Shown: positions 10,057 through 31,585, counted from the first letter of the stretch. The stretch: DNA of 37,392 nucleotides from Terriglobia bacterium (GCA_020073325.1 JAIQFJ010000008.1:1-37392), one strand, 5' to 3'. The notes: generated from the letters alone by a model not told the origin. A program made the numbers and translations.

Positions 10057-10734
10057 TCAGTCGATGATCTTCAGGTCGCGCAGGCGTTGATCGACATCGG
10101 GGCGCACCAGCACTCCGTTGTGGATCTCGGCCAGGCGCGTTTGCTCCCGCTTGATCTGCTCGGCGGCGAGCTTGGAGACGGCGATCGCGTCTTCAAGCGG
10201 AACCACCGTGACTCCGTCCTCATCGGCGACAATCACGTCGCCGGGACGGACGGCGACGCCGCCGCAGGCGATTATCGTGCCGACTTCCCCGCCCCCGTCC
10301 TTGTTGCATCCGTTGGGAGAAAGGCCGCGGGAGTAGACGGGCAATCCGAGTCGATGCAAACCGTCGGCGTCGCGAACGGTTCCGTCCACGATCACCGCAC
10401 GCACTCCGGCCTTCGCTGCGCTGGCCGCCAGGAGTTCGCCGAAGGTCGAATTGGAAACATTTCCCTGCGTGTTGACCACGACGATGTCGCCTGGCACGGC
10501 AAGCGATAGCGATTTGTGCAGCATCAGATTGTCGCCCGAATGGCACCACACGGTCAGCGCGGAGCCGATGACGCGCGGCGAATTCCACACGGGCTTGATG
10601 CCGGCGTCCATCGCTCCCAATCGCGACATGCAATCGGCGACCTGAGCGCTCGAAGCCTCGCGGAACGATTCGAGCAGCGCGGGTTCCGGGCGCAACCAGG
10701 CCGTCCGGACACGGAATCCAACTTTACCAGGCAT
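10057..10734 (-). CDS. RraA-family aldolase/decarboxylase-like protein (HMG/CHA aldolase type)
   Basis: 225 residues, full length for the RraA-like fold. The GEL segment (residues 99-101) and the V-x-D-G-x-x-R-D block (R121, D122) match the conserved substrate- and metal-binding signature of class II 4-hydroxy-4-methyl-2-oxoglutarate / 4-carboxy-4-hydroxy-2-oxoadipate aldolases. These cleave such acids to pyruvate plus pyruvate or oxaloacetate in the cytoplasm, using Mg2+ or Mn2+. The family also contains the RNase E regulator RraA, but the catabolic neighbours favour the enzyme. It is the last gene of the minus-strand arm, 45 bases after the Asp-box protein gene. Next to LeuCD-like hydro-lyase subunits, a retro-aldol step after hydration of an unsaturated tricarboxylate is the natural reading, but the substrate is not determined by sequence. 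Confidence 0.8.
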   Translation of the reverse strand: MPGKVGFRVRTAWLRPEPALLESFREASSAQVADCMSRLGAMDAGIKPVWNSPRVIGSALTVWCHSGDNLMLHKSLSLAVPGDIVVVNTQGNVSNSTFGELLAASAAKAGVRAVIVDGTVRDADGLHRLGLPVYSRGLSPNGCNKDGGGEVGTIIACGGVAVRPGDVIVADEDGVTVVPLEDAIAVSKLAAEQIKREQTRLAEIHNGVLVRPDVDQRLRDLKIID

Positions 10735-10779
10735 GGATAAGAGTCTCTCTTTCTCGATTCAACACATAGTTCAACATGG

Positions 10780-13700
10780 CTAATTTTTCGGGACAAGACC
10801 GGCGGTGTCGCCCTTCACGATCGCGTCGAGCCTTTGGCGGATCTCCTCCAGGCGCGACGTCAGTTCCTTGAGGACCGTGTAGCTCTGATCGGTGGGTCGC
10901 GAATCCGCGGATTCAATCACGCGGACCAGCGTCGCCAATTGGTTGTTCAGCTTGATGGGGTAATTCAGCGGATCGCGGAAACTGTGATTGCGGACCTGAT
11001 AGAGGTCTTCTTCGACCGCGCTGAGCCGCGTTGCAAGACGCTCGCCCGCGGCGTTCAGGCTGGGGTCGGCTGTGACGCGCGCGGCGATCTGCTTTTTCAA
11101 ATCGCGGATGCGGATCACCATGCTGTTCGCTTCGCTGGTTCGGTCGCGAGCCTCGGTGGCGAGCTTGAACTGCTCGGCGAGGTCAGCGTCGCTGACGTCA
11201 GCGAGGCGCGGATCCTTGACGATCCGAAACGTGCGCGTTTCGGTGGACCCGTTGGCGCTCAGCCGGACCTGATACTGGCCGGGCATTGCGACCGGTCCCT
11301 GCTCCGCGTTCACCTGCCACAGAATCATTCCGGGAAACGTCGTTGCTCCGGGATAGCGAAGATCCCAGGTGAAGCGATTGCCTCCCGCGTGGCGCGACGG
11401 CGGACGCTGTGCTCCTCCGCGGGGCGAATCTTCGTCATCGGACGCCTGCGCGGTGCGGCGGCGATCGTCGTCGGGCGTGCCGGCGAACGTTTTGACGACG
11501 GCTCCTTTGTCGTCAAGAATTTCGATGGTGACTTTGTCGGCGGCTTTGGGCAGATAGTAATCGAAGACGGCGCGATTCAACGGACGAACCGCGTCGCGAG
11601 GCGTGAATAGACGCGTATCGCTGCGCACGCCGCCGGCGAGCTCGCGCAGCATGCTGATGTCATCGAGGATGTAGAACGACCGGCCGTGCGTCGCGATCAC
11701 CAGGTCGTCGCCTTCGACCAGCAGATCCGGCACCTGCGTGTCGGGCAGATTCAGCCGCAGACTCTGCCACGCGGCGCCGTTGTCGAACGAAACGTAGATG
11801 CCGTGTTCTGTCCCGGCAAACAGCAGACCCGGACGCTTGGGATCTTCGCGGACCACGTGGACGAAATCGTCAGCGGCGATTCCGTTGACGATCGGAGTCC
11901 AGGTGGCGCCGTAATCGTCGGTGCGATAGGCGTAGGGCTTGCGATCGTCGGCCTGATAATTTTTCGCGGCGAGATACGCCGTGCCCGCTTTGTGCGGCGA
12001 AGCGTCGATCAGGCTGATGCGAATGAAATCGGGGATCCCTTTCGGCGTGACGTTCTTCCAGTTTTTCCCGCCGTCGCGCGTGATGTAGACCAGGCCGTCG
12101 TCGGAGCCGGTCCAGATGGTGTCCTTATCGAAATGCGACGGCGCGATGGCGAAGATCGTGCCGTAAATTTCGGGGCCGTTCTCATCGTGCGTGATGGGAC
12201 CTCCCGAATCGACCAGCGTTTGCGGATCGGCGCGCGTCAGATCGGGACTGATCGATAGCCAGCTCTGCCCCTGATTCGTCGTTTTCCAAAGATGCTGCGA
12301 CGACGTGTAAATCACGTTCGGATCGAGCGGCGAAAAAACGATGGGGAAGGTCCACTGCCAGCGCTCCTTCAGCGATCCCGCCGATTGGCCCGAAAACGCC
12401 ACGGGATAAACCTGCACATCGCGAAGCTGATTCGTCGCGCGATCGAATCGCGTCAGCAGCGCGACCTGCGATCCGGCGTAGAAAATATTCGGGTCCACCG
12501 GATGCGGCGCGATGTAGCCGCTTTCACCCCCGCCCACCGAATACGCCATGCCGGGACCGCGGCCCGCGGTCGCCGAGCTCGACACGCAGATGGTCGTGTT
12601 GTCCTGCTGCGCGCCGCAGACGTGATAAGGGACGTCCTTCGTTACGGCCACGTGATAGATCTGCGCTGTGGGATAAGCCTGCCCGGTCCAGCTTTCGCCG
12701 CCGTCGACGCTGACGTTGGCGCCGCCGTCATTCGCGTTGATCATGCGATGCGTATCGTTCGGCGCAATCCACAGGTCGTGATTGTCGCCGTGCGGCGGAC
12801 GCAGCGGACGAAACGATTTCCCGGCGTCGGTGGATTTGAAAAGTCCGGGGCTGAGCACGTAGACCAGATCCTTATTTTTCGGATCGGCATAGACGCGCGT
12901 GTAATAAAAAGGACGCTCGCGCAGCCGCGGATCTTCGTTGACGCGCTGCCACGTCGCGCCCGCATCATCGGAGCGAAACAGGCCGCCGTCCAGCGCTTCG
13001 ATCATCGCGTACACGCGGCGATCGTCGGCTCCCGAAACGGCGATTCCCATCTTTCCTAGAACACCGTTCGGCAATCCGGGGCTGCGCGTGATCTCGGTCC
13101 AGTGATCGCCGCCGTCGGTCGATTTGTAAATTCCCGAAGACGGCCCGCCGCTCGAAAGCGTCCACGAGGTCCGATACACGTCCCAGATCGTCGCATATAT
13201 CACGCGCGGATCTTTGGGATCGATGCACAGATCCACTGCGCCCGAATGATCGTCCTTATAAAGAATTTTCTGCCACGTGTTACCACCGTCGCGCGAGCGG
13301 AAAATGCCTCGCTCCGTGTTGCGTCCGAACGGATGGCCCAATGCGGCGACGTAAACCAGATCGGGATTCGACGGATCGACGCGAACGCGCGCGATCGATT
13401 GCGTCTCGTTCAGTCCGACGTTCTTCCACGTTTTGCCGCCGTCGACGGATTTGTAGACGCCGTCGCCCTGCATGATGTTGCCGCGCAGTTCGGTCTCGCC
13501 CATGCCGACGTAGACGATATCGGGATTCGAATCGGCCACCGCGACCGAGCCGACCGAAGAAGTCTTGATCTGGCCGTCCGTCACCGGATGCCACGTGGTT
13601 CCGCCGTTGGTGGTCTTCCACAAACCCCCGCCAGTCGCGCCGAAATAATATTCGTTGATGCGTGAGGAGCTGCCGGCGACCGCAATCGACCGTCCTCCGC

Positions 13701-13809
13701 GATTCGGCCCGATGCCGCGCCATTGCAGCGCCGTGAAGTAATTCGGATCGACCCGTTCCGCATATCCGAACGAGAGAGCAGCAGCGAAAAGAACGAGAAT
13801 GCGGTGCAT
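10780..13809 (-). CDS. Large secreted Asp-box beta-propeller protein (VPS10/sortilin-like 'glycosyl hydrolase'), copy A
   Basis: 1009 residues with a short signal peptide (about 1-17, cut before ERVDP). The first ~730 residues hold about eleven Asp-box (BNR) hairpins of S/T-x-D/N-x-G-x-x-W type, such as TTNGGTTW, SVDGGKTW, SRDGGNTW, STDGGDHW, TRDGGKNW and TDDYGATW, indicating one or two large beta-propellers. The C-terminal ~250 residues form a separate beta domain (PGQYQVRLSANG) followed by a helical tail rich in charged residues. Such proteins are routinely labelled glycosyl hydrolase or sortilin-like, but no activity is proven for this architecture and no catalytic set is visible. It sits inside the minus-strand catabolic arm, 22 bases after the aminotransferase. 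A close paralogue is the last gene of the opposite arm (27585-30695). Binding or processing of an extracellular substrate is inference. Confidence 0.85.
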   Translation of the reverse strand: MHRILVLFAAALSFGYAERVDPNYFTALQWRGIGPNRGGRSIAVAGSSSRINEYYFGATGGGLWKTTNGGTTWHPVTDGQIKTSSVGSVAVADSNPDIVYVGMGETELRGNIMQGDGVYKSVDGGKTWKNVGLNETQSIARVRVDPSNPDLVYVAALGHPFGRNTERGIFRSRDGGNTWQKILYKDDHSGAVDLCIDPKDPRVIYATIWDVYRTSWTLSSGGPSSGIYKSTDGGDHWTEITRSPGLPNGVLGKMGIAVSGADDRRVYAMIEALDGGLFRSDDAGATWQRVNEDPRLRERPFYYTRVYADPKNKDLVYVLSPGLFKSTDAGKSFRPLRPPHGDNHDLWIAPNDTHRMINANDGGANVSVDGGESWTGQAYPTAQIYHVAVTKDVPYHVCGAQQDNTTICVSSSATAGRGPGMAYSVGGGESGYIAPHPVDPNIFYAGSQVALLTRFDRATNQLRDVQVYPVAFSGQSAGSLKERWQWTFPIVFSPLDPNVIYTSSQHLWKTTNQGQSWLSISPDLTRADPQTLVDSGGPITHDENGPEIYGTIFAIAPSHFDKDTIWTGSDDGLVYITRDGGKNWKNVTPKGIPDFIRISLIDASPHKAGTAYLAAKNYQADDRKPYAYRTDDYGATWTPIVNGIAADDFVHVVREDPKRPGLLFAGTEHGIYVSFDNGAAWQSLRLNLPDTQVPDLLVEGDDLVIATHGRSFYILDDISMLRELAGGVRSDTRLFTPRDAVRPLNRAVFDYYLPKAADKVTIEILDDKGAVVKTFAGTPDDDRRRTAQASDDEDSPRGGAQRPPSRHAGGNRFTWDLRYPGATTFPGMILWQVNAEQGPVAMPGQYQVRLSANGSTETRTFRIVKDPRLADVSDADLAEQFKLATEARDRTSEANSMVIRIRDLKKQIAARVTADPSLNAAGERLATRLSAVEEDLYQVRNHSFRDPLNYPIKLNNQLATLVRVIESADSRPTDQSYTVLKELTSRLEEIRQRLDAIVKGDTAGLVPKN

Positions 13810-13831
13810 GAACGCTCCTTGACGGACATTT

Positions 13832-14953
13832 TCAGGCCCGGGCGGCCTTCACCGGCCAGCCGAGATCGGCGAGCGTCGCCTCCAGATGCAACAGATCGGT
13901 CGCGATGTCGCCGTCCGTGAAAAATCCCATGGTGCCGATGCGAATCACGCGGCCCTGCATTTTGTTGCGCGATCCCGCGATCACCGTTTTGTGGCGCTCA
14001 TACATGCGCTTGACGATGTCGCCGCCGTTGAGCGGCTCGGGCACTGCGAGCGCGACCACCGTAGTCGATAGCTGATTCGATTTTCCAAACGTCGCGAGCC
14101 CGAGCGCATTGCAGCCTTCGCGGAGCCGCACAGAGAGCTTGCGATGGCGCGCCAAGACGTTGTCGAGACCTTCCGCGTGCATCATCTCGAGCGCCTCGAC
14201 CAGCCCCGCCATCAGCGAAACCGGGGTCGTAAAGGGAGTCTCGTTCGCCTCGATCGATTTCTTCGCCTTGCGAAAATCCCAATAAAATCGCGGCATCTTC
14301 GTTTCCCGATTCACGATGTCCCACGCTTTCGCGCTGACGCTGGCGATGCCGACGCCGGGCGGGCACATCAGCGCTTTCTGCGAGGACGACACCACGATAT
14401 CGACACCCCATTCGTCCTGCCGCATCTCGAGCCCGCCGAGTCCGCTGACCGAATCGGCGATCAGCAGGGCCGGCGTGTCGCGCACGATTTTTCCGAGCGC
14501 GGCGAGATCGCTGTAAATTCCGGTCGAGCTTTCGTTGTGAATCACCACGACGGCTCGATAATCGGCGGTCTTGAGCTTCGCTGCGACCACGGCGGGATCG
14601 ATCGCGGTGCCCCATTCGAACTGAAGCTGATCGACCTCGGCTCCGATCGATTGGGCGATCGCGGCGAAGCGGTCGCCGAACTGGCCGTGGATGCAGACCA
14701 GCACACGTTCGCCGGGCGCGACGACGTTCACCAGGCTCGCTTCCATTGCGCCGGTTCCGGAGCTGGCAAAAAAGAGGACTGGGTTCGTGGTGCCGAGCAC
14801 GGGCTTGATCAATTCTTCGGCTCGGCCGAGCACCGCGCGAAATTCGGGTCCGCGATGATTCAGCACCGGCAGCGCGATCGCCTGGCGCACGCGTTCGGGA
14901 ACCGCCGTCGGACCGGGGAGGCGCAATCGATAAAAAGGAGAAATAGAAAGCAT
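13832..14953 (-). CDS. Class V PLP-dependent aminotransferase (alanine/serine--glyoxylate family)
   Basis: 373 residues, normal for the family. RLPGPTAVPERV at the N-terminus and LNHRGPEF (31-38) are diagnostic of the alanine-glyoxylate/serine-pyruvate aminotransferase group. SSGTGAMEA (64-72) is the phosphate-binding loop, D167 in LIADSVSG contacts the pyridine nitrogen, and K193 in SSQKALM forms the Schiff base. It would transfer an amino group to a small oxoacid such as glyoxylate or pyruvate. It starts 4 bases after the LeuD-like stop, so it is tightly co-transcribed with the hydro-lyase pair. In this setting it may dispose of, or supply, a 2-oxoacid made in the pathway. A 2-aminoethylphosphonate transaminase is a more remote possibility. 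The family is confident; the substrate is not. Confidence 0.85.
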   Translation of the reverse strand: MLSISPFYRLRLPGPTAVPERVRQAIALPVLNHRGPEFRAVLGRAEELIKPVLGTTNPVLFFASSGTGAMEASLVNVVAPGERVLVCIHGQFGDRFAAIAQSIGAEVDQLQFEWGTAIDPAVVAAKLKTADYRAVVVIHNESSTGIYSDLAALGKIVRDTPALLIADSVSGLGGLEMRQDEWGVDIVVSSSQKALMCPPGVGIASVSAKAWDIVNRETKMPRFYWDFRKAKKSIEANETPFTTPVSLMAGLVEALEMMHAEGLDNVLARHRKLSVRLREGCNALGLATFGKSNQLSTTVVALAVPEPLNGGDIVKRMYERHKTVIAGSRNKMQGRVIRIGTMGFFTDGDIATDLLHLEATLADLGWPVKAARA

Positions 14954-14957
14954 GAGT

Positions 14958-15455
14958 CTACACTTTGAAATCGTGATGGCGGCGGAAATACGGAACCAGC
15001 CCGCCGCATTCGAGAATCTCCATCATGATCTGGGGAACCTGTTCGGCCGCGGTGGTCTCGCCGGTGGTGAGATTGCGGACGCGCAATCCGTTTTCGTCGA
15101 CCACTTCCAGGCGGTCGCCCTCGCGAATCTGACTGGTGTCGCAGATCAGCGGCAGCAGGCCGTTGTTCACCGCGTTGCGATAATAGGTCCGCGAAAAACT
15201 GCGCGCGAGCACCGCACGAATTCCCGCGCCGAGCACCACCGTCACCGCGACCTCCATCGCCGATCCGCAGCCGAAATTTTTTCCCGCCACAATGAGATCG
15301 CCCGGCTCGACCGTCGCGGCAAACGCGGGGTCCACTTCCTCGAACAGATAATTCCTGAGCACCTGCGGATCGAGGCTTTCGCGCTTGCGCCGCGAGGTGA
15401 TGATGTAATCGGTATTGATGTCGTCGCCAAACACGCGGGCCCGTCCGCTCAGCAT
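14958..15455 (-). CDS. LeuD-like (aconitase-superfamily) hydro-lyase small subunit with altered active-site loop
   Basis: 165 residues, the usual size of archaeal-type/LeuD2-like small subunits. It opens with SGRARVFGDDINTDYIIT, the standard swivel-domain start, and has the AGKNFGCGS strand-turn. The family normally continues S-R-E-H-A after GCGS; here the residues are A-M-E-V-A. In aconitase the corresponding SSRE segment carries the catalytic serine and a substrate-binding arginine, so the first serine is kept but the second serine, the arginine and the histidine are lost. FSRTYYRNAVNNGLLPL follows as expected. It partners the large subunit encoded just upstream, whose last codons it overlaps by 7 bases. 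The complex should interconvert hydroxy and unsaturated di- or tricarboxylates, but the altered loop argues against plain isopropylmalate as substrate. Confidence 0.8.
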   Translation of the reverse strand: MLSGRARVFGDDINTDYIITSRRKRESLDPQVLRNYLFEEVDPAFAATVEPGDLIVAGKNFGCGSAMEVAVTVVLGAGIRAVLARSFSRTYYRNAVNNGLLPLICDTSQIREGDRLEVVDENGLRVRNLTTGETTAAEQVPQIMMEILECGGLVPYFRRHHDFKV

Positions 15456-16696
15456 GGAAACTCCCGCGGGTCAGCGATTTTTCCCGTCACCGCGGCCGCC
15501 GCGCAGCTCGCGGGCGAAGCGAGATAAATCGACGCACTGCTGTTGCCCATTCGTCCTTTGAAATTTCGATTCGCCGTCGAGATCACGTTCACGTTGTCGC
15601 CCGGAATCGATCCGCAAGTGCCGCAACACGATCCGCATCCCGGCGTCACGATCACCGCACCCATCGCGATAAAATCCCCCAGCGTTCCGTCGCGCGTCAG
15701 CGTATCGAGCACTGTTCGCGACGACGGCGTCACGACGAGTTGAACACCCGGAGCCACGCCTCCGCCCGCCTTGATCACGTCGCGAGCCTGATGAAAATCG
15801 CGGACGCGTCCGCCCGTGCAGGTGCCGAGATAAACCATCTGCACCGCGGTCCCCGCGGCTTCTCCTACCTCGACCACGTGATCGACGTGATGCGGCAGAG
15901 CGATCTTCGGAGTGACGCGATCGAGGTCCAGCTCGATCTCGCGCACATAACGCGCGCCGCGGTCGGAGGAGATCGGCTGGAACTCGCGGCCCAGATACTT
16001 CGCGGTCGCTTCGTCTCCCGGAAAAACGCCGTTTTTCGCGCCCATCTCGACCGTCAGATTGCTCAGCACCAGCCGGTCTTCGAGTTCCAGCGACGCCACG
16101 CCGTCGCCTGAAAATTCGAGCGCACAATACGCCGCGCCGTCCGCCCCCAGGATTCCCGCCATCGCGAGCGCGATGTCTTTCGGAAAAACTCCGCGGCTCA
16201 GCGATCCGCGCAGCGTGACGCGAATCGTTTCGGGAACGCGCAGCCACACCCGTCCGCAGATCATCACCGCCGCCAGGTCCGACGATCCGATGCCGGTGCC
16301 GAACGCGTTCATCGCGCCGTAGGTCACCGAATGGCTGTCGGCGCCGACCACCAGGCTGCCCGGTGTCACGCGGCCCGACTCGATCATCAACTGATGGCCG
16401 ATCCCGTCGCCGACATCCCACACCTCGATCGCGTGCGCGGCCGCGAAATCACGGATGCGTTTGTGGAGCTGGGTCGTCTTGACGCTCGGCGGCGGCGAAT
16501 AATGATCGAGCGCGAAGACGAGCCGCGCGGGATCGAACACCTTGCCCCCGCCCATGGCGTCGAAATAATCGAGCGCCATCGGAGTGGATCCGTCGTTGCC
16601 CATGGCGGAGTCGACATGGCACACCACCACGTCGCCCGCGCGCGCATCGCGCCCGGATTTCTCCGCCAGAATTTTTTCCGTGATGGTTTTTCCCAT
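15449..16696 (-). CDS. LeuC-like (aconitase-superfamily) hydro-lyase large subunit
   Basis: 415 residues, the length of archaeal-type IPM isomerase/homoaconitase/dimethylmalate-dehydratase large subunits, shorter than the ~466 of enteric LeuC. The start GKTITEKILAEKSG is typical. D30 follows HV in the substrate loop, GADSHSVTYGAMNAFGTGIGSSD is the canonical substrate and cluster segment, and the three [4Fe-4S] ligands are C293 (GTCTGG), C354 and C357 (PGCGSC). It catalyses reversible hydration or dehydration of a hydroxy-di/tricarboxylate in the cytoplasm together with the small subunit. The two genes overlap, which fixes the pairing. The usual leucine-pathway neighbours LeuA and LeuB are absent, and the gene sits 28 bases after an M14 peptidase in a catabolic arm, so a degradative role is more likely than leucine biosynthesis. 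Confidence 0.85.
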   Translation of the reverse strand: MGKTITEKILAEKSGRDARAGDVVVCHVDSAMGNDGSTPMALDYFDAMGGGKVFDPARLVFALDHYSPPPSVKTTQLHKRIRDFAAAHAIEVWDVGDGIGHQLMIESGRVTPGSLVVGADSHSVTYGAMNAFGTGIGSSDLAAVMICGRVWLRVPETIRVTLRGSLSRGVFPKDIALAMAGILGADGAAYCALEFSGDGVASLELEDRLVLSNLTVEMGAKNGVFPGDEATAKYLGREFQPISSDRGARYVREIELDLDRVTPKIALPHHVDHVVEVGEAAGTAVQMVYLGTCTGGRVRDFHQARDVIKAGGGVAPGVQLVVTPSSRTVLDTLTRDGTLGDFIAMGAVIVTPGCGSCCGTCGSIPGDNVNVISTANRNFKGRMGNSSASIYLASPASCAAAAVTGKIADPREFPC

Positions 16697-16724
16697 CTCG
16701 ACCCTGTCTCGACTTTGAGACGGA

Positions 16725-19484: not shown

Positions 19485-19606
19485 AAGGTTCCCGAAACTT
19501 CCAACTAGTATATCAGTTTGATCATGGGTTGGGAAGCTTTTAATCTTCACAATCACTGTGTATTATAAATTTCTTACGCAAAGCCGCTGGAACGAGGACC
19601 CCAGGA
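19485..19606. promoter_or_regulatory. Divergent promoter region of the two catabolic arms
   Basis: These 122 bases separate the divergent M14 and TcuA-like genes and are AT-rich. On the minus strand TATACT (19506-19511) is a good -10 box about 22 bases from the ATG, but its -35 is weak. On the plus strand TATTATAAA (around 19560-19568) is a good -10 candidate. The minus -10 lies inside the imperfect palindrome ACTAGTATATCAGT (19503-19516 region), a plausible operator for the GntR/FCD regulator encoded at 30809. A promoter here is required by the gene layout; the exact boxes are tentative. Confidence 0.5.
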
Positions 19607-22053: not shown

Positions 22054-22067
22054 TATGTGAATCCAGC

Positions 22068-23663: not shown

Positions 23664-23666
23664 ACT

Positions 23667-25016: not shown

Positions 25017-26323
25017 ACGTCGATCAGGCGGTCACCGAAGCGCGGCGTTCATTCGAACAGAATCCGCTTGACCCGTACGATCGCTACCGCATTCTCTTCG
25101 CCGCGTCGAAGCTGGCCGCTGAGCGCAAAGCGGAACTGGTTCGATCGATCATCGACGAGGCGCATTTCACGTTTTCCGACGCTTCCACCGAAGTCGAACG
25201 CTGCACGCAAACGCTGGTCGTGTCGGGCGAAGAAGCCAAGCGGATTCACGGCGAGATGGTGCCGATCGACGGCGCTCCGGGACAGTCGCAGCGGCTCGCA
25301 TTCACGATTCGCGTGCCGCGCGGAGTGGTGTGCGCGATCACGCCGTTCAATTCGCCGCTAAACACGGTGGCTCACAAAGTGGCTCCGGCGATCGCGGCGG
25401 GAAACACGGTGGTCCTGAAGCCGTCGAGTTACACGCCGAAGACGGCAGCGATGTTCCGCGATATTTTGATCGCGGCAGGATTGCCCTCCGGACACATTCA
25501 TCTGGTCGACGGGCCGGGTCGCGAAGTCGGGCGCGAATTGGCCGCGCATCAAGGTGTCGCTTTTTACACGTTCACGGGCAGCACGGCCACGGGGAAAGCT
25601 CTGCGCGACGCGGCGGGGCTGCGGCCGGTGTCGCTCGAACTGGGCAGCATCGCGAGCACCATCGTGTGCGAGGACGCGCCGCTCGATCGCGCGATTCCGC
25701 GCTGCGTCAATGCCGCGTTTCGCAAAGCGGGGCAGGTGTGCACGTCGGTGCAGCGGCTTTACGTGCACGATTCCATCGCGGACCGTTTCAGCGAAGCTCT
25801 GGTCGCAAAGATCGCCGCGGCGAAGACCGGCGATCCCTACGATCCGCAGACGCTGGTGGGTCCGATGATCAGCGAACAGGAGGCGATTCGCGCGGAAACG
25901 TGGATTCGCGAAGCGGTCGATGGCGGAGCGAAGCTGCTGATCGGCGGGCAGCGCGAGGGCTCGCTGATTTATCCCACGGTGCTCGCCGATGCGCGTCCGC
26001 AAATGAAAGTGATGTGCGAAGAAATTTTCGCGCCGGTAGTGTCGATCGTGCGCTACAGGTCGCTGGACGAGGCGATCGAGCAGGTGAACGACACCTGCTA
26101 CGGGCTCGCCGCCGGGATTTTCACGAACGATCTCCAGCGCGCAATGAAGGCGGCGCGTCGGCTTCACATGGGGTCGGTCCATATCAATGAAACGTCGAGC
26201 AGCCGCGTCGACCTGATGCCGTATGCCGGAGCGAAAGACAGCGGATCGGGTCGCGAAGGACCGAAGTACGCGATCCAGGAAATGACCGAAGAACGGCTGA
26301 TCACGATCAGTCTGAGCGAATGA
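25013..26323 (+). CDS. NAD(P)-dependent aldehyde dehydrogenase
   Basis: 436 residues from the ATG at 25013, which overlaps the previous stop; an upstream in-frame GTG at 24953 is far inside the preceding gene. The ALDH catalytic set is complete: N113 in PFNSPLN, E209 in LELGS, C243 in GQVCTS, plus K136 (VVLKPSS) for the cofactor and the EEIFAPV block. LELGS replaces the usual ELGG. The C-terminal segment HINETSSSRVDLMPYAGAKDSGSGREGP resembles phosphonoacetaldehyde/semialdehyde-type members. It should oxidise a semialdehyde, plausibly the product of the ThDP enzyme, to a carboxylic acid. At 436 residues it is somewhat shorter than the typical 470-490, mainly at the N-terminus. It overlaps the transporter gene by 4 bases. 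Confidence 0.85.
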   Translation: MNVDQAVTEARRSFEQNPLDPYDRYRILFAASKLAAERKAELVRSIIDEAHFTFSDASTEVERCTQTLVVSGEEAKRIHGEMVPIDGAPGQSQRLAFTIRVPRGVVCAITPFNSPLNTVAHKVAPAIAAGNTVVLKPSSYTPKTAAMFRDILIAAGLPSGHIHLVDGPGREVGRELAAHQGVAFYTFTGSTATGKALRDAAGLRPVSLELGSIASTIVCEDAPLDRAIPRCVNAAFRKAGQVCTSVQRLYVHDSIADRFSEALVAKIAAAKTGDPYDPQTLVGPMISEQEAIRAETWIREAVDGGAKLLIGGQREGSLIYPTVLADARPQMKVMCEEIFAPVVSIVRYRSLDEAIEQVNDTCYGLAAGIFTNDLQRAMKAARRLHMGSVHINETSSSRVDLMPYAGAKDSGSGREGPKYAIQEMTEERLITISLSE

Positions 26324-27588
26324 AGCTACATACGAAAATCCTGATCGGACTGGCGGCGGGCGCCGCGGCGGGGTTGCTGGCGAACGCGCTGGCGCTCGAC
26401 TGGCTCCTCAAGACGCTCACGTTCCTCGACGTCTACGGGCGGCTGTTCATCCGGCTGATCACGATGATTATCATTCCGCTGGTGGCGGCGAGCCTGATTT
26501 GCGGCGTCGCCTCGCTCGGCGACATTCGCAAGCTGGGACGCATCGGCGGCAAGACGCTGGGTTTTTTTCTGATCACAACGGTCGTGGCCGCGAGCATCGG
26601 TATTCCCGTCGCGGCGCTGCTGAAGCCTGGCATAGGACTCGGCGAGCGGCCGAATGTCCAGACGGGCAACATCGGCGAAGTGAAGAATCCGACGGTCGCC
26701 GACAGCATCCTGAGCATCGTTCCGAGCAATCCAGTCGGGGCCGCGGCGAGCGGCGATCTGCTCGGCGTGATCGTTTTCACGATCGTGTTCGGCGCGGCGC
26801 TCGGTGTGCTGCCCGAAGATCGGCGAGGGCCGGTGCTGCGATTTTTCGCGGGCGTCAACGACGCGTCGATGGTGGTGATCGGATGGGCGATGAAGCTCGC
26901 GCCGACCGCTGTGTTCTGCCTGATCGCGGCGGCGGTGGCGAAATTCGGTGTCGGCTTTCTGCGCGGGCTCGCGATGTTCTGCGTCGCCGTGCTGATCGGC
27001 CTGGCGATTCATCTGATCGGCACTTACGGAATCGTGCTGCGATTCCTTTGCGGCGCGAATCCGTTCACGTTCTACCGTCGCGTGGCGGAGGTGCCGCTGA
27101 TGGCGTTTTCGACATCGTCCTCGAGCGCGACATTGCCGGTGAGCCTGGAAACGGCGGAAAAAGATTTGGGAATTTCGCAGGCGGTCGCAGGATTCGTCCT
27201 GCCGCTCGGCGCGACGATGAACAAGACCGGATCGGCATTATATAAGACCGTCGCGGCGATGTTCATCATGCAGGTGCTCGGCGTGCCGGCTCCGCTGTCG
27301 CGCAAACTGATGCTGATTTTCGCGGCCACGGTTTCGGCGATGACGACGGCCGGAGTTCCCGGCAGCGGCATGGTGTCGATCGTGCTGGTGCTGCAGATCG
27401 CGGGGCTCGGCTATCTGGCTCCCGCGGGTGTCGCGCTGGTCGCGGGAGTCGACCGCATTCTCGACATGTGCCGCACCGCAGTGAACGTCACGGGAAACAT
27501 GGTCTGCGTCGCTTATGTCGCGCGCAGCGAAGGCGAGAAGCTAGAAACGCGGCCCGTCGAGCGGGTCCGGTCAGGAGTGGCCTCATGA
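26320..27588 (+). CDS. Dicarboxylate/amino acid:cation symporter (DAACS family) with altered cation-site motifs
   Basis: 422 residues with eight membrane segments and two re-entrant hairpins by family pattern. The first hairpin carries FSTSSSSATLP. TM8 has D378-R-I-L-D382-M-C-R385-T386-A-V-N389, matching the GltPh substrate residues D390, D394, R397, T398 and N401, so an acidic di- or tricarboxylate or amino acid is expected. In TM7 the hallmark N-M-D-G-T reads N301-K-T-G-S305, and the residue matching GltPh D405 is N393. Both aspartates known to hold sodium in GltPh are thus absent. It is the probable importer of the pathway substrate and overlaps both its upstream (aldehyde dehydrogenase) and downstream (Asp-box protein) genes by ATGA-type junctions. 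Confidence 0.85.
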   Translation: MKLHTKILIGLAAGAAAGLLANALALDWLLKTLTFLDVYGRLFIRLITMIIIPLVAASLICGVASLGDIRKLGRIGGKTLGFFLITTVVAASIGIPVAALLKPGIGLGERPNVQTGNIGEVKNPTVADSILSIVPSNPVGAAASGDLLGVIVFTIVFGAALGVLPEDRRGPVLRFFAGVNDASMVVIGWAMKLAPTAVFCLIAAAVAKFGVGFLRGLAMFCVAVLIGLAIHLIGTYGIVLRFLCGANPFTFYRRVAEVPLMAFSTSSSSATLPVSLETAEKDLGISQAVAGFVLPLGATMNKTGSALYKTVAAMFIMQVLGVPAPLSRKLMLIFAATVSAMTTAGVPGSGMVSIVLVLQIAGLGYLAPAGVALVAGVDRILDMCRTAVNVTGNMVCVAYVARSEGEKLETRPVERVRSGVAS

Positions 27589-30500
27589 TTCGTCGGCTCG
27601 TGTTGATGGCTTGCGCGGCGCTGATGGCGCAGGCGCAGATCGATCCGAAAATGTTTTCGCTGTGGCAGTGGCGAAACATCGGACCCATCCGCGGCGGACG
27701 CGCGATCACGGCGGCGGGAAGCTCCGCACGGCCGCTCGAATATTTCATGGGCACGGTGGGCGGCGGTGTGTGGAAGACGTCGGACGCGGGCGCGAACTGG
27801 TCGCCGGTCAGCGACGGATTTTTTCACAGCGCATCGGTCGGCTCCATCGACGTGTGTCCCGCCAATCCCGACGTCGTCTACGCGGGTATGGGCGAGGGCG
27901 ACTGGCGTGCGCAGATGGGCACCGGCGACGGAGTTTACGTCACGCGCGACGCGGGAAAAACGTGGACTCACGCGGGGCTCGCGTCGACCTCGCGGCAGCA
28001 GACGGTCCCGCGCCTGATCGTCGATCCGTCGAATTGCGACAACGTGCTCGCCGCGGTCATGGGCGATCCGCACGGTCCGAATCCGGAGCGCGGAATTTTT
28101 CGCACCACGGACAGCGGAAAGACGTGGACGAAAATTCTGTATCGCGGCGAAGACATGGGCGCGATCGATCTGGCGGTCGATCCGAGAAATCGAAATATTC
28201 TCTACGCCGCGCTGTGGAACGCGGTGCGCAAGCCGTGGGGCGGGCAGGTCGGCATGAAGAGCGGCATTTTCAAATCGACCGACGGCGGGGTGACGTGGAC
28301 GGAACTGACGCACAACAAGGGAATTCCTGAGGGGCGCATTGGAAAGATCGGGCTCGCGATCGGCGCGAATTCGAGCCGCATTTACGCGCTGCTCGAAATG
28401 GATCCCGACCTCGGCGGCGTCTTCCGCTCCGACGACGGCGGCGAATCGTGGACGCGCATGAACGGAGATCATACGCTGACCAGCCGCGGCGAATATTACA
28501 CGCGCATTTTCTCCGATCCGAAAATCAACGATCGCATTTACGTGATGAACAAAGAGGTCTATCGCTCGGATGACGGCGGCAAGACGTACACCACCGTTCG
28601 CACTCCGCACGGCGACAATCACGCGTTGTGGATCGATCCGAAAGATTCGAATCGCATGATCGAATCGAACGATGGCGGGTCCGTGATCAGCTTCAACGGC
28701 GGACGCACCTGGAGCGATCAGCGTTATTCCACCGCGCAGATTTATCACGTCCTCACGACGCCGACGTTTCCTTACCTGGTCTGCGGCGCCGAACAGGACA
28801 ATACGTCGAAGTGCCTGCCGAGCGATGGCGACGGCACGTTCTGGTATCAGGGACCGGCAGGCGAACAGGGCTACATCGCCATCGATCCGCGGCGTCCGAC
28901 GCTCGGCTACGGCGGCAATCAGCGCGGCGAAATGGTGCGCTACGATCGCGCCACCGGCCAGCGGCAGCGCGTCGATGTGAGTCCGAACATGCCCGGCGGC
29001 GAAAATTCCGCCCAGACCAAAGAGCGCTTCCAGTGGACTTTTCCCATCCTGATGTCGCCGAAAGATCCCGACGAACTTTTCGCCGGATCGCAACACGTGT
29101 GGATGACGCGCAACGGCGGACATAGCTGGACCGCGATCAGTCCCGACCTGACGCGCGCCGAGCCAAAGACGCTGCTCGACTCCGATGAGCCGGTGAACGA
29201 GCACAACAGCCAGGACGCTTACGGAACCGTGTTCAGCATCGCGATCTCGACGCTCGACGCGAACATCATCTGGACCGGCTCCGATGACGGATGGATTCAC
29301 GTCACCCGCGATCACGGCGGGCACTGGCAGAAAGTGACTCCTCCCGAGCTTCCGGAATTCGCGAAAATTTCGATGATCGCGGCGTCTCCGCACGAAGCGG
29401 GCGCAGCCTACGTCGCCGCGGATCGCCACAAGATGCAGGACGTCGCCACGTATTTCTTCAAGACGTCCGATTACGGAAACACGTGGACAAAGATCGCCGG
29501 CGGAATCGCGGGCGGCGCGTGGGCGTGTTCCATCAAGGAAGATCCGAAGCGGCGCGGCCTGCTTTATGCGGGGACCGAGCACGGGATCTACGTTTCGTTC
29601 AACGACGGCGCGCGCTGGATGCCGTTGTCGCTGAACCTGCCCGACGTCAACGTCAGCGATCTGGAAATTCGCGAAAACGATCTGATCATTTCGACCTTCG
29701 GGCGCGGGATCTATATTCTTGACGACATGTCTCCGCTGCGCGAGCTTCCCGCGGCGTCGACGCATCTGTTCCGGCCGTCGAGCGTGATCCGCACTTCGAG
29801 CGCGACGGTTGACGGCGGCGAATATCGCCGCACGATTCTTCCCGGCGCCAATCGCGCCGACATTTATTACTTTCTCCGTGAATCGGCACGGCGTGTAAGC
29901 GTCGAGATCCTCGATGCAAAAGGAGCAATCGTGCGGAAGTTCGAAGGAACCGCGTCGAGCCGTCCGCGCGCGCCGATCCGAAATTCGGTGGGCGATCTCG
30001 TCAACGCCGCGTCATGGGGATCGGCGAGCCCGGAGCCGGTGGTTCGCGTCGGCACCGGATTGAATCGAGTGGTGTGGGATCTTCGCACGGCTCCGGCGGC
30101 CGATTTTCCGGGATTGCTGCTGCGCGACACAAACGTCGATGGCCCGCCGGTTCCGCCCGGCGAATATCAGGTGCGGCTCAACGTCGACGGCCACGCGGAA
30201 ACGCAGCCGCTGCATATCGACAAAGATCCGAGGCTAGCCGGGGTTTCGCAGGCGGATCTCGAAGCGCAGTTCGAACTCGCCACGCGAGTGCATCGCGCGC
30301 TGGGCGAAGTGACGGCGTCGGTGGTTCGCATCCGCGCAGCCAAGTCGGCGATCGAGGATCGCATGAAGAGTTCGCAAGGCCTTCGCGCGCCGGGCGAAGA
30401 AGCCGAAAAGCGGCTCACGGAAATCGAGGCTCTGATCTATCAGATCCACAACGAATCGACCAGCGACATCATGCATTGGGGTCCGCGCCTCGCCGACAAG

Positions 30501-30695
30501 CTGGCCGAGGTCTACGCGGTGATCAAGAGCGCCGACGCGGCGCCTACGGACCAGGCTCGGGAAGTGTTCGCCGAATTGTCGAGGGAACTCGATCAGCGTT
30601 TGACGGAACTGCAGAAGATCGTGCGCGACAACCTGGCCGCATTTAACGAATTACTGCGGCGGCAGGGGCTCTCCGAGATCCGGCTCGAGCGGTAA
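27585..30695 (+). CDS. Large secreted Asp-box beta-propeller protein (VPS10/sortilin-like 'glycosyl hydrolase'), copy B
   Basis: 1036 residues from the ATG at 27585, which overlaps the transporter stop (ATGA) and has CAGGAG upstream. This start gives the signal peptide MIRRLVLMACAALMAQA before QIDPK. About eleven Asp-box hairpins are visible (TSDAGANW, TRDAGKTW, TTDSGKTW, STDGGVTW, SDDGGESW, TRNGGHSW, TSDYGNTW and others) over the first ~720 residues. A beta domain (PGEYQVRLNVDG) and a charged helical tail follow. It is a clear paralogue of the protein at 10780-13809: W(Q/R)WRxIGPxRGGR and YxGMGE near the N-terminus and PRLAxVSxADLxxQFELAT near the end are shared. The function is unproven. 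Tight coupling to an importer suggests it acts on or binds the imported substrate or its source outside the cell. Confidence 0.85.
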   Translation: MIRRLVLMACAALMAQAQIDPKMFSLWQWRNIGPIRGGRAITAAGSSARPLEYFMGTVGGGVWKTSDAGANWSPVSDGFFHSASVGSIDVCPANPDVVYAGMGEGDWRAQMGTGDGVYVTRDAGKTWTHAGLASTSRQQTVPRLIVDPSNCDNVLAAVMGDPHGPNPERGIFRTTDSGKTWTKILYRGEDMGAIDLAVDPRNRNILYAALWNAVRKPWGGQVGMKSGIFKSTDGGVTWTELTHNKGIPEGRIGKIGLAIGANSSRIYALLEMDPDLGGVFRSDDGGESWTRMNGDHTLTSRGEYYTRIFSDPKINDRIYVMNKEVYRSDDGGKTYTTVRTPHGDNHALWIDPKDSNRMIESNDGGSVISFNGGRTWSDQRYSTAQIYHVLTTPTFPYLVCGAEQDNTSKCLPSDGDGTFWYQGPAGEQGYIAIDPRRPTLGYGGNQRGEMVRYDRATGQRQRVDVSPNMPGGENSAQTKERFQWTFPILMSPKDPDELFAGSQHVWMTRNGGHSWTAISPDLTRAEPKTLLDSDEPVNEHNSQDAYGTVFSIAISTLDANIIWTGSDDGWIHVTRDHGGHWQKVTPPELPEFAKISMIAASPHEAGAAYVAADRHKMQDVATYFFKTSDYGNTWTKIAGGIAGGAWACSIKEDPKRRGLLYAGTEHGIYVSFNDGARWMPLSLNLPDVNVSDLEIRENDLIISTFGRGIYILDDMSPLRELPAASTHLFRPSSVIRTSSATVDGGEYRRTILPGANRADIYYFLRESARRVSVEILDAKGAIVRKFEGTASSRPRAPIRNSVGDLVNAASWGSASPEPVVRVGTGLNRVVWDLRTAPAADFPGLLLRDTNVDGPPVPPGEYQVRLNVDGHAETQPLHIDKDPRLAGVSQADLEAQFELATRVHRALGEVTASVVRIRAAKSAIEDRMKSSQGLRAPGEEAEKRLTEIEALIYQIHNESTSDIMHWGPRLADKLAEVYAVIKSADAAPTDQAREVFAELSRELDQRLTELQKIVRDNLAAFNELLRRQGLSEIRLER

Positions 30696-30808
30696 CGGCT
30701 GCAACGCAACTGACTCAATTCACATCGCGGATCTGTCCTGTTTCTTCACGAATTTGCAAGAAAAGGCGCCCTTGTTGTGTGGTATCGTAGTGGTCGCAAG
30801 GAGTCCGA
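30696..30808. promoter_or_regulatory. Intergenic region upstream of the GntR regulator
   Basis: The 113 bases between copy B and the regulator gene contain a strong Shine-Dalgarno (AAGGAG, 7 bases before the ATG) and an AT-richer stretch. GTGGTATCGTAG at about 30779-30790 vaguely resembles a T-G-GTAT-type FCD-GntR half-site and could be autoregulatory. The promoter boxes are not convincing. Confidence 0.3.
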
Positions 30809-31585
30809 ATGAGAGCGCGCGAATCCGACGGATTGGCAGGTGAAGCGTATCTGATTGTTCGGGAGCGAATTCTCCGCGGCGAACTGGCGATCGGGCAGCC
30901 CATCTCGCGCCGCAAGCTCGCGGCTGAACTGGGGATGAGCTTTCTCCCGGTGTCGGAAGCGCTGCTGAGGCTCGAAAACGAAGGCCTTGTGGAGAGCCGG
31001 CCCCGCGCCGGAACTCGCGTCCGTCTGCCCAGCCAGGAAGACGTTCAGGGTCATTACATCGTTCGCGAGGCGCTCGAAGTCAAGTCGGCGATGCTGTTCT
31101 CCGAAGTGGCGACGTCGAGCGAACGAAGCGAGCTGATGAAGTTGGCCGCGCGCGTCGATTCGCTTTCGACGCAGACCGATTCAGGCCGCCTGATCTATCT
31201 CAGCCTGCACGAAAAACTGCACTGGCGTGTGGCGGAATGCACGCGCTGTAAGCCGCTGTGCGACGCTCTGGCAAGGACCTCAGCGCTCGCCTCGACGTGG
31301 CTTTGCGCGGCGAAGGTCGCGACACCGGACGATCCGCCGCACACGCATCAGGACCTGCTGAAGATTCTTTCAAGCGACGATTCGAACGCCGCAGGCGAAG
31401 CCATGCGGCGTCATATTCAGTCGAGCATGCAGAAAACGCTGCGCCGCCTGGAGCCCTACTTCCAGATGCGCGAACAGTATGCCGATACGTTCTCGCGCAA
31501 GCCGACCAAGCAGCTTCAAATCGAATCGCTGGTCGCCTCCGCCGCGAGCCTCGAACAGAGCGCGGAGCCGCGGTCCGAGCGCTAG
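30809..31585 (+). CDS. GntR-family transcriptional regulator, FCD subfamily
   Basis: 258 residues. The N-terminal winged helix (about 10-75) shows AYLIVRERILRGELAIGQPISRRKLAAELGMSFLPVSEALLRLENEGLVESRPRAGTRV-type family order: the helix-turn-helix then the GLVE wing. The C-terminal all-helical FCD domain (about 85-225) holds the candidate metal/ligand histidines in LHEKLHWRVAE, in HTHQDLLK and in RRHIQSS. FCD regulators typically sense small carboxylic acids such as lactate, citrate-type acids or their products, and repress adjacent operons. It follows the plus-strand arm by 113 bases in the same direction, so it is the likely local regulator. Target sites are proposed in the divergent promoter region at 19485-19606. 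The family call is firm; ligand and targets are inference. Confidence 0.85.
   Translation: MRARESDGLAGEAYLIVRERILRGELAIGQPISRRKLAAELGMSFLPVSEALLRLENEGLVESRPRAGTRVRLPSQEDVQGHYIVREALEVKSAMLFSEVATSSERSELMKLAARVDSLSTQTDSGRLIYLSLHEKLHWRVAECTRCKPLCDALARTSALASTWLCAAKVATPDDPPHTHQDLLKILSSDDSNAAGEAMRRHIQSSMQKTLRRLEPYFQMREQYADTFSRKPTKQLQIESLVASAASLEQSAEPRSER

What the first reader, a model, noticed from the sequence alone, without database searches (positions are those of the whole stretch)
10057..31585. Divergent 13-gene catabolic locus with a GntR regulator, probably for a tricarballylate/aconitate-class acid
Two tightly packed arms diverge from a 122-bp region. One holds an M14 peptidase, a LeuC/LeuD-like hydro-lyase, a class V aminotransferase, an Asp-box protein and an RraA-like aldolase. 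The other holds TcuA- and TcuB-like proteins, a ThDP enzyme, MmgE/PrpD, ALDH, a DAACS carrier and a second Asp-box protein, then an FCD regulator. Seen directly: gene order, overlaps and motifs. Established: TcuA/TcuB oxidise tricarballylate to cis-aconitate; RraA-type enzymes retro-aldol hydroxy-oxo-polycarboxylates; MmgE/PrpD acts on 2-methylcitrate or cis-aconitate. Inferred: import, desaturation, hydration or decarboxylation, cleavage to pyruvate/oxaloacetate-type products, then semialdehyde oxidation and transamination. The described Tcu system consists of a dehydrogenase, electron-transfer protein, citrate-type transporter and LysR regulator; this set is much larger and rewired.
Basis: partly seen in the sequence, partly recalled or inferred. 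Interest (0 to 1): 0.78.

Follow-up and report, generated by a model that had tools for sequence, protein, structure and literature searches.

The report
Acidic amino-acid catabolic module, unknown substrate
A soil acidobacterium carries a two-armed gene cluster whose conserved core (an acidic amino-acid importer, a transaminase, an unusual relative of the leucine-pathway enzyme LeuCD, and a pyruvate-forming aldolase) recurs in unrelated bacteria and probably breaks down an unusual glutamate-like compound into pyruvate; the substrate is not yet known.

Summary
In detail: two packed arms diverge from 122 bp, six genes in one, seven plus a GntR/FCD gene in the other. The tricarballylate/aconitate reading is only partly supported.

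The arms differ in conservation. LeuC-LeuD, aminotransferase and RraA-like aldolase form a module found in Acidobacteriota, Pseudomonadota and Bacillota in five gene orders. Its LeuD belongs to one clade (22 of 98 rows, support 99/91) in which the GSSRE substrate-binding motif has become GSAME (GSSME in one row) and the recognition loop is basic. RraA lies within 12 kb in 14 of 22 such loci against 0 of 77 other LeuD loci (rows are related). A glutamate/aspartate-type carrier (GltS or DAACS) lies near in 9 of 22; the window's DAACS is the counterpart in the second arm.

TcuA, TcuB, ThDP enzyme, PrpD and ALDH were found near the module in none of the other 21 loci.

Best explanation: import of an acidic amino acid, transamination, Fe-S hydration, aldol cleavage to pyruvate plus a 2-oxo acid; a C4-substituted glutamate such as 4-methyleneglutamate fits best. 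This chemistry is inferred. The right arm is probably a locus-specific oxidative branch.

The parts
10057..10734 (-). RraA-like class II pyruvate aldolase (module core)
   Evidence: PF03737 148 bits. Nearest solved structure is the HMG/CHA aldolase 3NOJ. Of the residues compared, R40, N71, H75, R123, D124, G144, K147 and E199 are kept; D102 is E, T145 is C and R195 is Q (my reading of the alignment; residues from passages of PMC5065237; the interest of D102 is recalled). RraA near GSAME/GSSME LeuD in 14 of 22 loci.
10780..13809 (-). Asp-box/VPS10-like protein, probably secreted (by eye), role unknown
   Evidence: PF15902 116.5 bits; 52 matched stretches of this family in the genome.
13832..14953 (-). 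class V aminotransferase (module core)
   Evidence: PF00266; best NCBIfam is the aspartate-glyoxylate aminotransferase BhcA, 298 bits against a cut-off of 650. AT5 near GSAME/GSSME LeuD in 13 of 22 loci.
14958..15455 (-). LeuD-like small subunit, GSAME subfamily (module core)
   Evidence: TIGR02087 151 bits, over its cut-off of 109. GCGSAMEVA in place of GCGSSRE(H/Q)A, and loop TSRRKRESLDP.
15449..16696 (-). LeuC-like [4Fe-4S] large subunit (module core)
   Evidence: PF00330 290 bits; NF001614 486 against a cut-off of 385. Cys 293, 354 and 357 lie in the TCTGG and CGSC motifs.
16725..19484 (-). M14 zinc carboxypeptidase-like protein with N-terminal hydrophobic stretch (by eye)
   Evidence: PF00246 66.7 bits; HSTE motif at residue 134; an M14 relative (30%) lies 1.4 kb from the module in G242.
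19485..19606 (.). 122-bp divergent promoter region
   Evidence: one 17-nt imperfect palindrome at 19556-19583 and one minus-strand sigma-70-like match against a mean of 0.2 in shuffles; neither is proof of an operator or promoter.
19607..20980 (+). TcuA-family FAD dehydrogenase
   Evidence: NF006130 646 bits against 369, TIGR02485 562 against 373.
20964..22046 (+). TcuB-family 4Fe-4S membrane protein
   Evidence: TIGR02484 402 bits against 246.6, NF011607 481 against 524; Cys at residues 19, 22, 25, 29 and 53, 56, 59, 63.
22068..23663 (+). ThDP enzyme, acetolactate-synthase/2-oxoacid-decarboxylase type
   Evidence: Three TPP-enzyme domains; below the cut-offs of the 25 NCBIfam models shown of 52.
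23667..25016 (+). MmgE/PrpD-family protein
   Evidence: PF03972 and PF19305; nearest solved relatives IDS-epimerase 2hp3 and bacterial IRG1 7bra.
25013..26323 (+). aldehyde dehydrogenase
   Evidence: PF00171 459 bits (longer frame from 24953); best NCBIfam models lactaldehyde, phosphonoacetaldehyde and sulfoacetaldehyde dehydrogenase, all below cut-off; GQVCTS and ELGS motifs.
26320..27588 (+). DAACS (SDF) acidic amino-acid carrier (module transporter)
   Evidence: PF00375 383 bits; best solved relative an aspartate transporter, 9bgz; of 4 DAACS found in the genome it is the one nearest to the G242 module carrier, 48% and 369 bits, next 35% and 157 bits.
27588..30695 (+). second Asp-box/VPS10-like protein
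   Evidence: PF15902 108 bits (longer frame from 27468).
30809..31585 (+). GntR/FCD-family regulator
   Evidence: PF00392 57 bits, PF07729 41 bits.

Best explanation
The locus is built around a five-protein catabolic module: a DAACS carrier, a class V aminotransferase, a LeuC/LeuD-like Fe-S hydro-lyase of a distinct GSAME subfamily, and an RraA-type pyruvate aldolase. It imports an acidic, glutamate-like amino acid (DAACS). It transaminates it to the 2-oxo acid (aminotransferase). It adds water across a carbon-carbon double bond, or moves a hydroxyl group, to give a 4-hydroxy-2-oxo-dicarboxylate (LeuCD-like). RraA then cleaves that product to pyruvate plus a second 2-oxo acid. The substrate class that fits best is a C4-substituted, unsaturated glutamate: 4-methyleneglutamate would give 4-hydroxy-4-methyl-2-oxoglutarate and then two pyruvates. 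The right arm (TcuAB, ThDP enzyme, PrpD, ALDH) is a locus-specific addition. It plausibly handles a saturated or decarboxylated branch: 2-oxo acid to aldehyde to acid by ThDP enzyme and ALDH, then desaturation of the substituted succinate by TcuAB. The M14 peptidase may free the amino acid from peptides. Shown: gene families, motifs, conserved linkage, transporter class. Inferred: every reaction, the substrate, the order of steps, control by the FCD regulator.
For: Conserved linkage: RraA within 12 kb in 14 of 22 GSAME/GSSME LeuD loci against 0 of 77 other LeuD loci, class V aminotransferase 13/22 against 2/77, GltS 5/22 against 0/77, DAACS 4/22 (window included) against 0/77; three more loci have a class I AspAT near LeuD, so 16 of 22 have an aminotransferase. 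Five gene orders with RraA: LeuC-LeuD-AT5-RraA in the window's order (with further genes between in the window itself); RraA-AT5-LeuC-LeuD-DAACS in G242 and G284; LeuC-LeuD-RraA-AspAT in Burkholderia (L080, L081); LeuC-LeuD-AspAT-RraA in Cupriavidus campinensis (L174); AT5-PALP-LeuC-LeuD-TRAP-SBP-RraA in Flintibacter (L085). The aminotransferase in L081 is an aspartate-transaminase type, 596 bits against a cut-off of 617, and its carrier is GltP-like, 623 against 638. GltS of L199 is 303.5 bits against 310.75 for TIGR00210 and 298 bits for PF03616. The window DAACS is nearest to an aspartate transporter and keeps DMCRTAVN in the last helix. One clade with support 99/91 among 98 LeuD rows. [quoted passage not shown] both are changed here. 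RraA keeps 8 of the 11 HMG/CHA aldolase residues I compared. The genome has a separate LeuC/LeuD locus on C120.
Against: No substrate evidence exists. Eight of 22 clade loci show no RraA: L202 and L203 stop 0.3 and 1.2 kb after LeuD at a contig end, L079 is a 7.3-kb contig that keeps AT5, L082 has AT5 but no RraA, and G010, L204, L207 and L095 show neither RraA nor aminotransferase with about 9-12 kb on each side. So LeuCD can stand without these neighbours. The 22 rows are related (13 from the window's order), so the Fisher P of 8e-12 overstates independence. Known glutamate/aspartate carriers lie near only 9 of 22; L082 and L085 have a TRAP transporter with NMT1-like binding protein and L174 a Bug-like binding protein (by eye in L082 and L174), types that also carry other acids (recalled). 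In 7 of the 13 loci of the window's order the module lies near histidine-degradation genes, which may mean plain glutamate metabolism. RraA-type aldolases also act as oxaloacetate decarboxylases (PMC5065237). TcuA scores high as a tricarballylate dehydrogenase, which this model puts in a side branch, and TcuAB, RraA, PrpD, ALDH and ThDP genes lie within 30 kb on one Neorhizobium plasmid.
Confidence: 0.5

Rival explanations
1. One reading: a tricarballylate/aconitate-class acid is imported, desaturated by TcuAB, hydrated or decarboxylated, cleaved by RraA, with semialdehyde oxidation and transamination at the end.
For: TcuA and TcuB over curated cut-offs; PrpD resembles IRG1/cis-aconitate decarboxylase structures; on a Neorhizobium plasmid TcuAB, RraA, PrpD, ALDH and ThDP relatives lie within 30 kb, interspersed with other genes, and in M. 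nodulans TcuAB is 11 kb from a ThDP-ALDH pair. I raised this from 0.15 to 0.18 after adding the Neorhizobium result.
Against: TcuAB, ThDP, PrpD and ALDH were found in none of the other 21 clade loci. The known carriers near the module are glutamate/aspartate types. No citrate-type transporter and no LysR gene among the locus genes.
Confidence: 0.18
2. 3- or 4-hydroxyglutamate catabolism: the BhcA-like aminotransferase uses glyoxylate as acceptor, LeuCD moves or epimerises the hydroxyl group, and RraA cleaves 4-hydroxy-2-oxoglutarate to pyruvate and glyoxylate, which feeds the aminotransferase.
For: The aminotransferase is nearest to a glyoxylate-using family; same transporters and linkage as the best explanation.
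Against: 4-hydroxyglutamate needs no hydratase; I recognised no hydroxyproline genes by eye in the stretches read, without a search for them; RraA resembles HMG/CHA aldolase, and activity on 4-hydroxy-2-oxoglutarate was not checked.
Confidence: 0.15
3. A beta-hydroxyaspartate or glyoxylate-type route in which RraA acts as oxaloacetate decarboxylase.
For: BhcA is the best-scoring aminotransferase model; a threonine/3-hydroxyaspartate ammonia-lyase-like PALP enzyme lies in the Flintibacter cluster and, by eye, in the Oleispirillum cluster.
Against: BhcA scores 298 against a cut-off of 650; no PALP enzyme or other recognisable BhcB, BhcC or BhcD family among the 14 window genes; LeuCD has no place in that cycle (recalled).
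Confidence: 0.1
4. Two unrelated operons that happen to diverge: a module plus its carrier on one side, a Tcu-type oxidation operon on the other.
For: Right-arm enzymes were not found near the module elsewhere; TcuAB stands without the module in G011.
Against: The module's carrier is embedded in the right arm, its gene overlapping that of ALDH by 4 nt; one shared 122-bp promoter region and similar Asp-box genes in both arms.
Confidence: 0.25
5. The LeuCD pair makes leucine, isoleucine (citramalate route) or homoaconitate.
For: Subfamily models for archaeal-type LeuC/LeuD are over cut-off.
Against: GSSRE lost; no LeuA, LeuB or CimA family among the locus genes; separate LeuC/LeuD in the genome; equivalog models for IPMI and homoaconitase well under cut-off.
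Confidence: 0.03

Closest known systems
Archaeal-type isopropylmalate isomerase / homoaconitase (LeuC-LeuD, HacA-HacB; structures 3vba, 2pkp)
   Same: Same two-subunit family, Fe-S cysteine motifs and the first Ser of GSSRE kept; Arg25 aligns with the Arg of the homoaconitase loop.
   Different: Arg of GSSRE replaced by Met; basic SRRKR loop; catabolic neighbours instead of leucine or lysine genes.
HMG/CHA aldolase (RraA fold, 3NOJ)
   Same: Eight of eleven compared residues kept, among them R123, D124 and E199.
   Different: D102, T145 and R195 changed; below the equivalog cut-offs (170.9 against 179; 146 against 304.5); set next to LeuCD and an aminotransferase, not in a gallate or protocatechuate operon.
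Tricarballylate utilisation system TcuABC/TcuR (content recalled)
   Same: TcuA and TcuB family members, adjacent and in order.
   Different: No TcuC-type transporter, GntR/FCD instead of LysR, and ten further genes besides carrier and regulator.
beta-Hydroxyaspartate cycle (BhcABCD, content recalled)
   Same: Aminotransferase related to BhcA.
   Different: BhcA cut-off not met; no BhcB, BhcC or BhcD recognised in the window arms.
2,3-Dimethylmaleate hydratase DmdAB (recalled)
   Same: A LeuCD-family hydro-lyase used in catabolism; TIGR02087 names LeuD/DmdB together.
   Different: DmdB's motif could not be seen here; its lyase partner is not RraA (recalled).

Membership tests
Isopropylmalate isomerase / homoaconitase small subunit | GSSRE substrate-binding motif | tested here: not met
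   GSAME in window and 20 other rows, GSSME in one; GSSRE (74) or GSARE (2) in the other 76 of 98 rows.
Isopropylmalate isomerase / homoaconitase small subunit | Curated equivalog score | tested here: not met
   HacB_Meth 124.6 against 230, HacB2_Meth 132.4 against 230, leud 121.6 against 245.85; of the models shown only the subfamily model TIGR02087 is met.
Isopropylmalate isomerase / homoaconitase small subunit | Leucine or lysine biosynthesis context | tested here: not met
   No LeuA/LeuB family among the 14 genes; separate LeuC/LeuD on C120.
Tcu system | TcuA and TcuB | tested here: met
   Over TIGR02485, NF006130 and TIGR02484 cut-offs; TcuB under NF011607.
Tcu system | Citrate-type transporter and LysR regulator | tested here: not met
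   Carrier is SDF/DAACS; regulator is GntR/FCD.
Tcu system | Growth on tricarballylate | not testable with these tools
   No experiment possible.
HMG/CHA aldolase | Catalytic and metal residues (R123, D124, E199) | tested here: met
   Aligned residues kept (residue roles from passages of PMC5065237); D102, T145 and R195 are changed.
HMG/CHA aldolase | Equivalog cut-off | tested here: not met
   NF006731 170.9 against 179; TIGR02798 146.1 against 304.5.
BhcA of the beta-hydroxyaspartate cycle | NF045640 cut-off and BhcBCD neighbours | tested here: not met
   298.1 against 650; no BhcB/C/D-like family recognised in the arms.
Acidic amino-acid DAACS carrier | Asp and Arg of the last helix (D394/R397 of GltPh, numbering and role recalled) | tested here: met
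   ILDMCRTAVNVTGN aligns with ILDMARTTVNVTGD of the aspartate transporter 9bgz.
Acidic amino-acid DAACS carrier | GltP equivalog cut-off | tested here: not met
   251 against 638, though above the scores of the DctA models (214, 186).
DmdAB | Sequence motif and lyase partner | not tested
   No DmdB sequence was fetched; the listing of the paper search showed no motif.

The most novel reading that the evidence does not exclude
The GSAME LeuCD subfamily is a new functional branch of the aconitase superfamily. It hydrates or isomerises 2-oxo-dicarboxylates (activated by a ketone instead of a beta-carboxylate, hence loss of the GSSRE arginine and gain of a basic loop). It serves a so far undescribed bacterial route that turns C4-substituted, plant-type non-protein glutamates into pyruvate, present in at least three phyla and likely annotated today as isopropylmalate dehydratase or homoaconitase. 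The window shows an extended version with an added Tcu/ThDP/ALDH branch for saturated analogues.
Probability: 0.35. Interest if true: 0.7.

Novelty: new variant of a known kind. Interest (0 to 1): 0.52.

Why it matters
A set of proteins whose best database models are leucine or lysine enzymes shares a changed substrate-binding motif and consistent catabolic neighbours in unrelated bacteria. That gives a concrete, testable new specificity in the aconitase superfamily and a candidate pathway for amino acids whose bacterial breakdown I found no description of in the listings of the paper searches run. It also corrects the reading of this locus: the conserved part is an amino-acid module, the tricarballylate-like part is the local addition.

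Tried and rejected
Leucine biosynthesis by the LeuCD pair: rejected (motif, context, second copy in the genome).

Using MmgE/PrpD neighbours to name the pathway: the plasmid relatives (47-58% in the 20 of 24 records listed) lie among CoA-thioester enzymes in the 4 annotated records read, none of which is in the window; C. metallidurans and C. campinensis records carry no annotation in the stretches fetched (the second of these is the LeuCD locus). No conclusion.

Using the ThDP enzyme: no homologue above 38% outside the window in 250 order and 347 phylum genomes under the limits used, and 31-35% in the 20 of 107 plasmid records listed. ALDH relatives at 49-53% lie next to a ThDP gene in Methylobacterium nodulans and Neorhizobium and one small gene away from one in Rhizobium sp. 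Q54 (3 of the 4 top-ranked ALDH plasmid hits; the fourth, Peribacillus has none listed). Those ThDP proteins are only 26-27% identical to the window's, so this supports a ThDP-ALDH pairing in general, not orthology.

Operator search in the 122-bp region: one imperfect palindrome and one promoter-like match (mean 0.2 in shuffles), no clear operator. A BKACE test of the own genome was negative. The paper search for LeuCD + RraA + aminotransferase catabolic clusters listed 10 papers, none with such a cluster in title or abstract start.

Structure prediction was not run: a single subunit would not show the shared active site.

Full report
WHAT IS THERE. The window is contig C155 of a 6.54-Mb draft genome in 600 contigs, 93% complete, 4.5% contaminated. 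The minus arm is RraA-like, Asp-box, class V aminotransferase (AT5), LeuD-like, LeuC-like, M14 (listed by coordinate). The plus arm is TcuA, TcuB, ThDP enzyme, MmgE/PrpD, ALDH, DAACS, Asp-box, then a GntR/FCD gene. Gaps within arms are from -17 to 45 nt, and the divergent gap is 122 nt. The ORF antisense to TcuA (19574-21022) has no Pfam match and looks like a shadow frame.

THE LEUD IS NOT A NORMAL LEUD. The window LeuD reads GCGSAMEVA where isopropylmalate isomerase and homoaconitase relatives read GCGSSRE(H/Q)A. [quoted passage not shown] Both are changed here. The loop reads TSRRKRESLDP; Arg25 aligns with the Arg of the methanogen homoaconitase loop (2pkp alignment). That Ser642 of mitochondrial aconitase is the general base is in PMC8184944 (passages); that it is the first Ser of GSSRE, and that the following Arg contacts a substrate carboxylate, is recalled. 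The first Ser is kept and the Arg is Met. In a tree of 98 LeuD rows, the 22 rows with GSAME (21) or GSSME (1, L095) are one side of a branch with support 99/91; the label needs 1 change against 20.1 in shuffles. Fe-S cysteine motifs of LeuC are in place. The genome also has a LeuC/LeuD locus on C120, so the window pair is not its only one.

HOW COMMON. With alignment A3, 13 of 250 genomes of the window's order hold the clade at E of 2e-75 or better, and the next hits fall at 1.2e-39. That order contains contigs named Bryobacterales palsa_129 and Solibacteraceae SbA4. Across an even draw of the phylum it is 3 of 347 including the own genome; in the class of G242, 1 of 38, G242 itself. Named holders are Solibacteraceae SbA4 (L077), Bryobacterales palsa_129 (L078), Hyphomicrobiaceae UBA2767 (L079), two Burkholderia (L080, L081), Oleispirillum naphthae (L082), Flintibacter muris (L085) and a deltaproteobacterium (L095), all, and Cupriavidus campinensis (L174).

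NEIGHBOURS. I tested 22 clade loci and 77 other LeuD loci for relatives of the window and module genes within 12 kb (tblastn, at least 50 bits). RraA: 14/22 against 0/77. AT5: 13/22 against 2/77 (L083 and L093, beside leucine and serine genes by eye). DAACS 4/22 against 0/77. GltS 5/22 against 0/77. Class I AspAT 4/22 against 3/77; one of the 4, in L213, is a weak 23% match. M14 2/22 against 0/77. TcuA and ALDH 1/22 each (window only) against 0/77. ThDP 1/22 against 11/77. PrpD 1/22 against 1/77. Fisher P for RraA is 8e-12, but rows are related: 13 of 22 are from the window's order. Still the RraA pairing recurs in five gene orders in separate lineages. Against: G010, L204, L207 and L095 have neither RraA nor aminotransferase with roughly 9-12 kb on each side; L082 and L079 have AT5 but no RraA; L202 and L203 end 0.3 and 1.2 kb after the centre of LeuD.

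TRANSPORTERS POINT TO AN ACIDIC AMINO ACID. In five loci of the window's order a GltS sodium/glutamate symporter lies beside RraA (L199: PF03616 298 bits, TIGR00210 303.5 against 310.75). G242 and G284 have a DAACS directly after LeuD, and Burkholderia L081 has a GltP-like carrier (623 against 638). Of four DAACS found in the own genome the window's is nearest to the G242 carrier, 48% and 369 bits, next 35% and 157 bits. It aligns best with an aspartate transporter and keeps the DxxRT..N pattern of the last helix; the meaning of those residues in GltPh (amino group and side-chain carboxylate) is recalled. Burkholderia L080 has an amino-acid type binding protein (SBP_bac_3). Flintibacter L085 has a TRAP transporter with NMT1-like binding protein, Oleispirillum L082 a similar one and Cupriavidus L174 a Bug-like one by eye; these say less. 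The aminotransferases are BhcA-like (298 against 650) or aspartate-transaminase-like (596 against 617), both related to acidic amino-acid enzymes.

MECHANISM, INFERRED. RraA keeps eight of eleven compared residues of HMG/CHA aldolase, including the enolate-stabilising R123 and metal ligands D124 and E199; D102, T145 and R195 are changed (PMC5065237 passages). That enzyme cleaves 4-hydroxy-2-oxo-dicarboxylates to pyruvate and a 2-oxo acid. A transaminase in front of it makes the natural substrate a 4-hydroxyglutamate type; a hydro-lyase between them makes it an unsaturated or 3-hydroxy isomer. 4-Methyleneglutamate, known from plants (recalled), would give two pyruvates. Losing the Arg of GSSRE and gaining a basic loop suits a substrate whose carboxylate sits one carbon further out, behind a ketone. 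This is a structural argument without a structure. The paper searches for methyleneglutamate and related terms (30 of 51 papers listed, 15 of 26 listed) showed no title or abstract start about bacterial catabolism of such amino acids; most subscription papers are not in that library.

RIGHT ARM. TcuA and TcuB are genuine family members. TcuAB stands without the module in G011 (TcuA 67%, TcuB 58%). The ThDP enzyme has no homologue above 38% outside the window in the draws searched under the limits used. On three alphaproteobacterial plasmids the ALDH relative lies next to, or one small gene from, a ThDP gene, and in M. nodulans TcuAB is 11 kb away, but those ThDP proteins are only 26-27% identical. 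On the Neorhizobium plasmid TcuAB, an RraA (38% over 167 residues) and a PrpD (31%) lie in the same 30 kb, with many other genes between. A ThDP-ALDH pair suits oxidative loss of CO2 from a 2-oxo acid. The product of a 4-substituted 2-oxoglutarate would be a substituted succinate, the kind of compound TcuA desaturates. I mark this as a guess of about 0.2.

VERDICT. Observation confirmed; interpretation partly supported. The conserved unit is an amino-acid module. About 0.75 that the core enzymes plus carrier work together on an acidic amino acid, about 0.4 that it is a C4-substituted glutamate cleaved to pyruvate.

Noticed in passing
L199, L203, L204, L205, L206, L207, L209 (7 of 13 module loci of the window's order): Histidine-degradation genes (hutU, hutI, ftcD) lie within about 10 kb of the LeuCD module. 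Confirmed by NCBIfam in L203, L204, L206, L207 and L209; by eye in L199 and L205. This may tie the module to glutamate metabolism.
   Followed up: partly
whole genome G000: 52 matched stretches of the Sortilin-VPS10/Asp-box family over many contigs, so the two Asp-box genes in the locus belong to a much repeated family of unknown role.
   Followed up: partly
L070, L072, L076 (same-genus genomes G007, G020, G018): Two further LeuC/LeuD-like pairs in divergent orientation close together, one LeuD with GSAREQA and one in which my GxGS....A pattern was not found and the N-terminus reads FGHNIPTDMITP; another possible non-standard hydro-lyase locus.
   Followed up: no
L085 4334-13451 and L082 7500-14300: Flintibacter, and by eye Oleispirillum, versions add a PALP enzyme (threonine/3-hydroxyaspartate ammonia-lyase-like) and a TRAP-type transporter with an NMT1-like binding protein.
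   Followed up: partly
L067 4406-5509 and L068 10749-11825 (G068, G331): TcuB relatives (56-57%) without a TcuA relative detected by tblastn in the fetched stretch.
   Followed up: no
NZ_CP043441.1 2520788-2532428 (Cupriavidus campinensis): A PrpD relative (53.5%) and a TcuA relative (58%) lie about 9 kb apart on the same replicon that also carries the L174 module elsewhere.
   Followed up: no
L225 8274-38089 (Neorhizobium pNCHU2750a): TcuA, TcuB, RraA, PrpD-like, ALDH and ThDP genes within 30 kb, interspersed with transport and other genes.
   Followed up: partly
window 4160-7222 and 7480-8295: A large protein with repeated C-terminal domains and a protein with a PEP-CTERM-like end, both judged by eye without a family search.
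   Followed up: no
L079 1947-3012: The Hyphomicrobiaceae aminotransferase gene is split into two tblastn pieces, perhaps a frameshift or assembly error.
   Followed up: no
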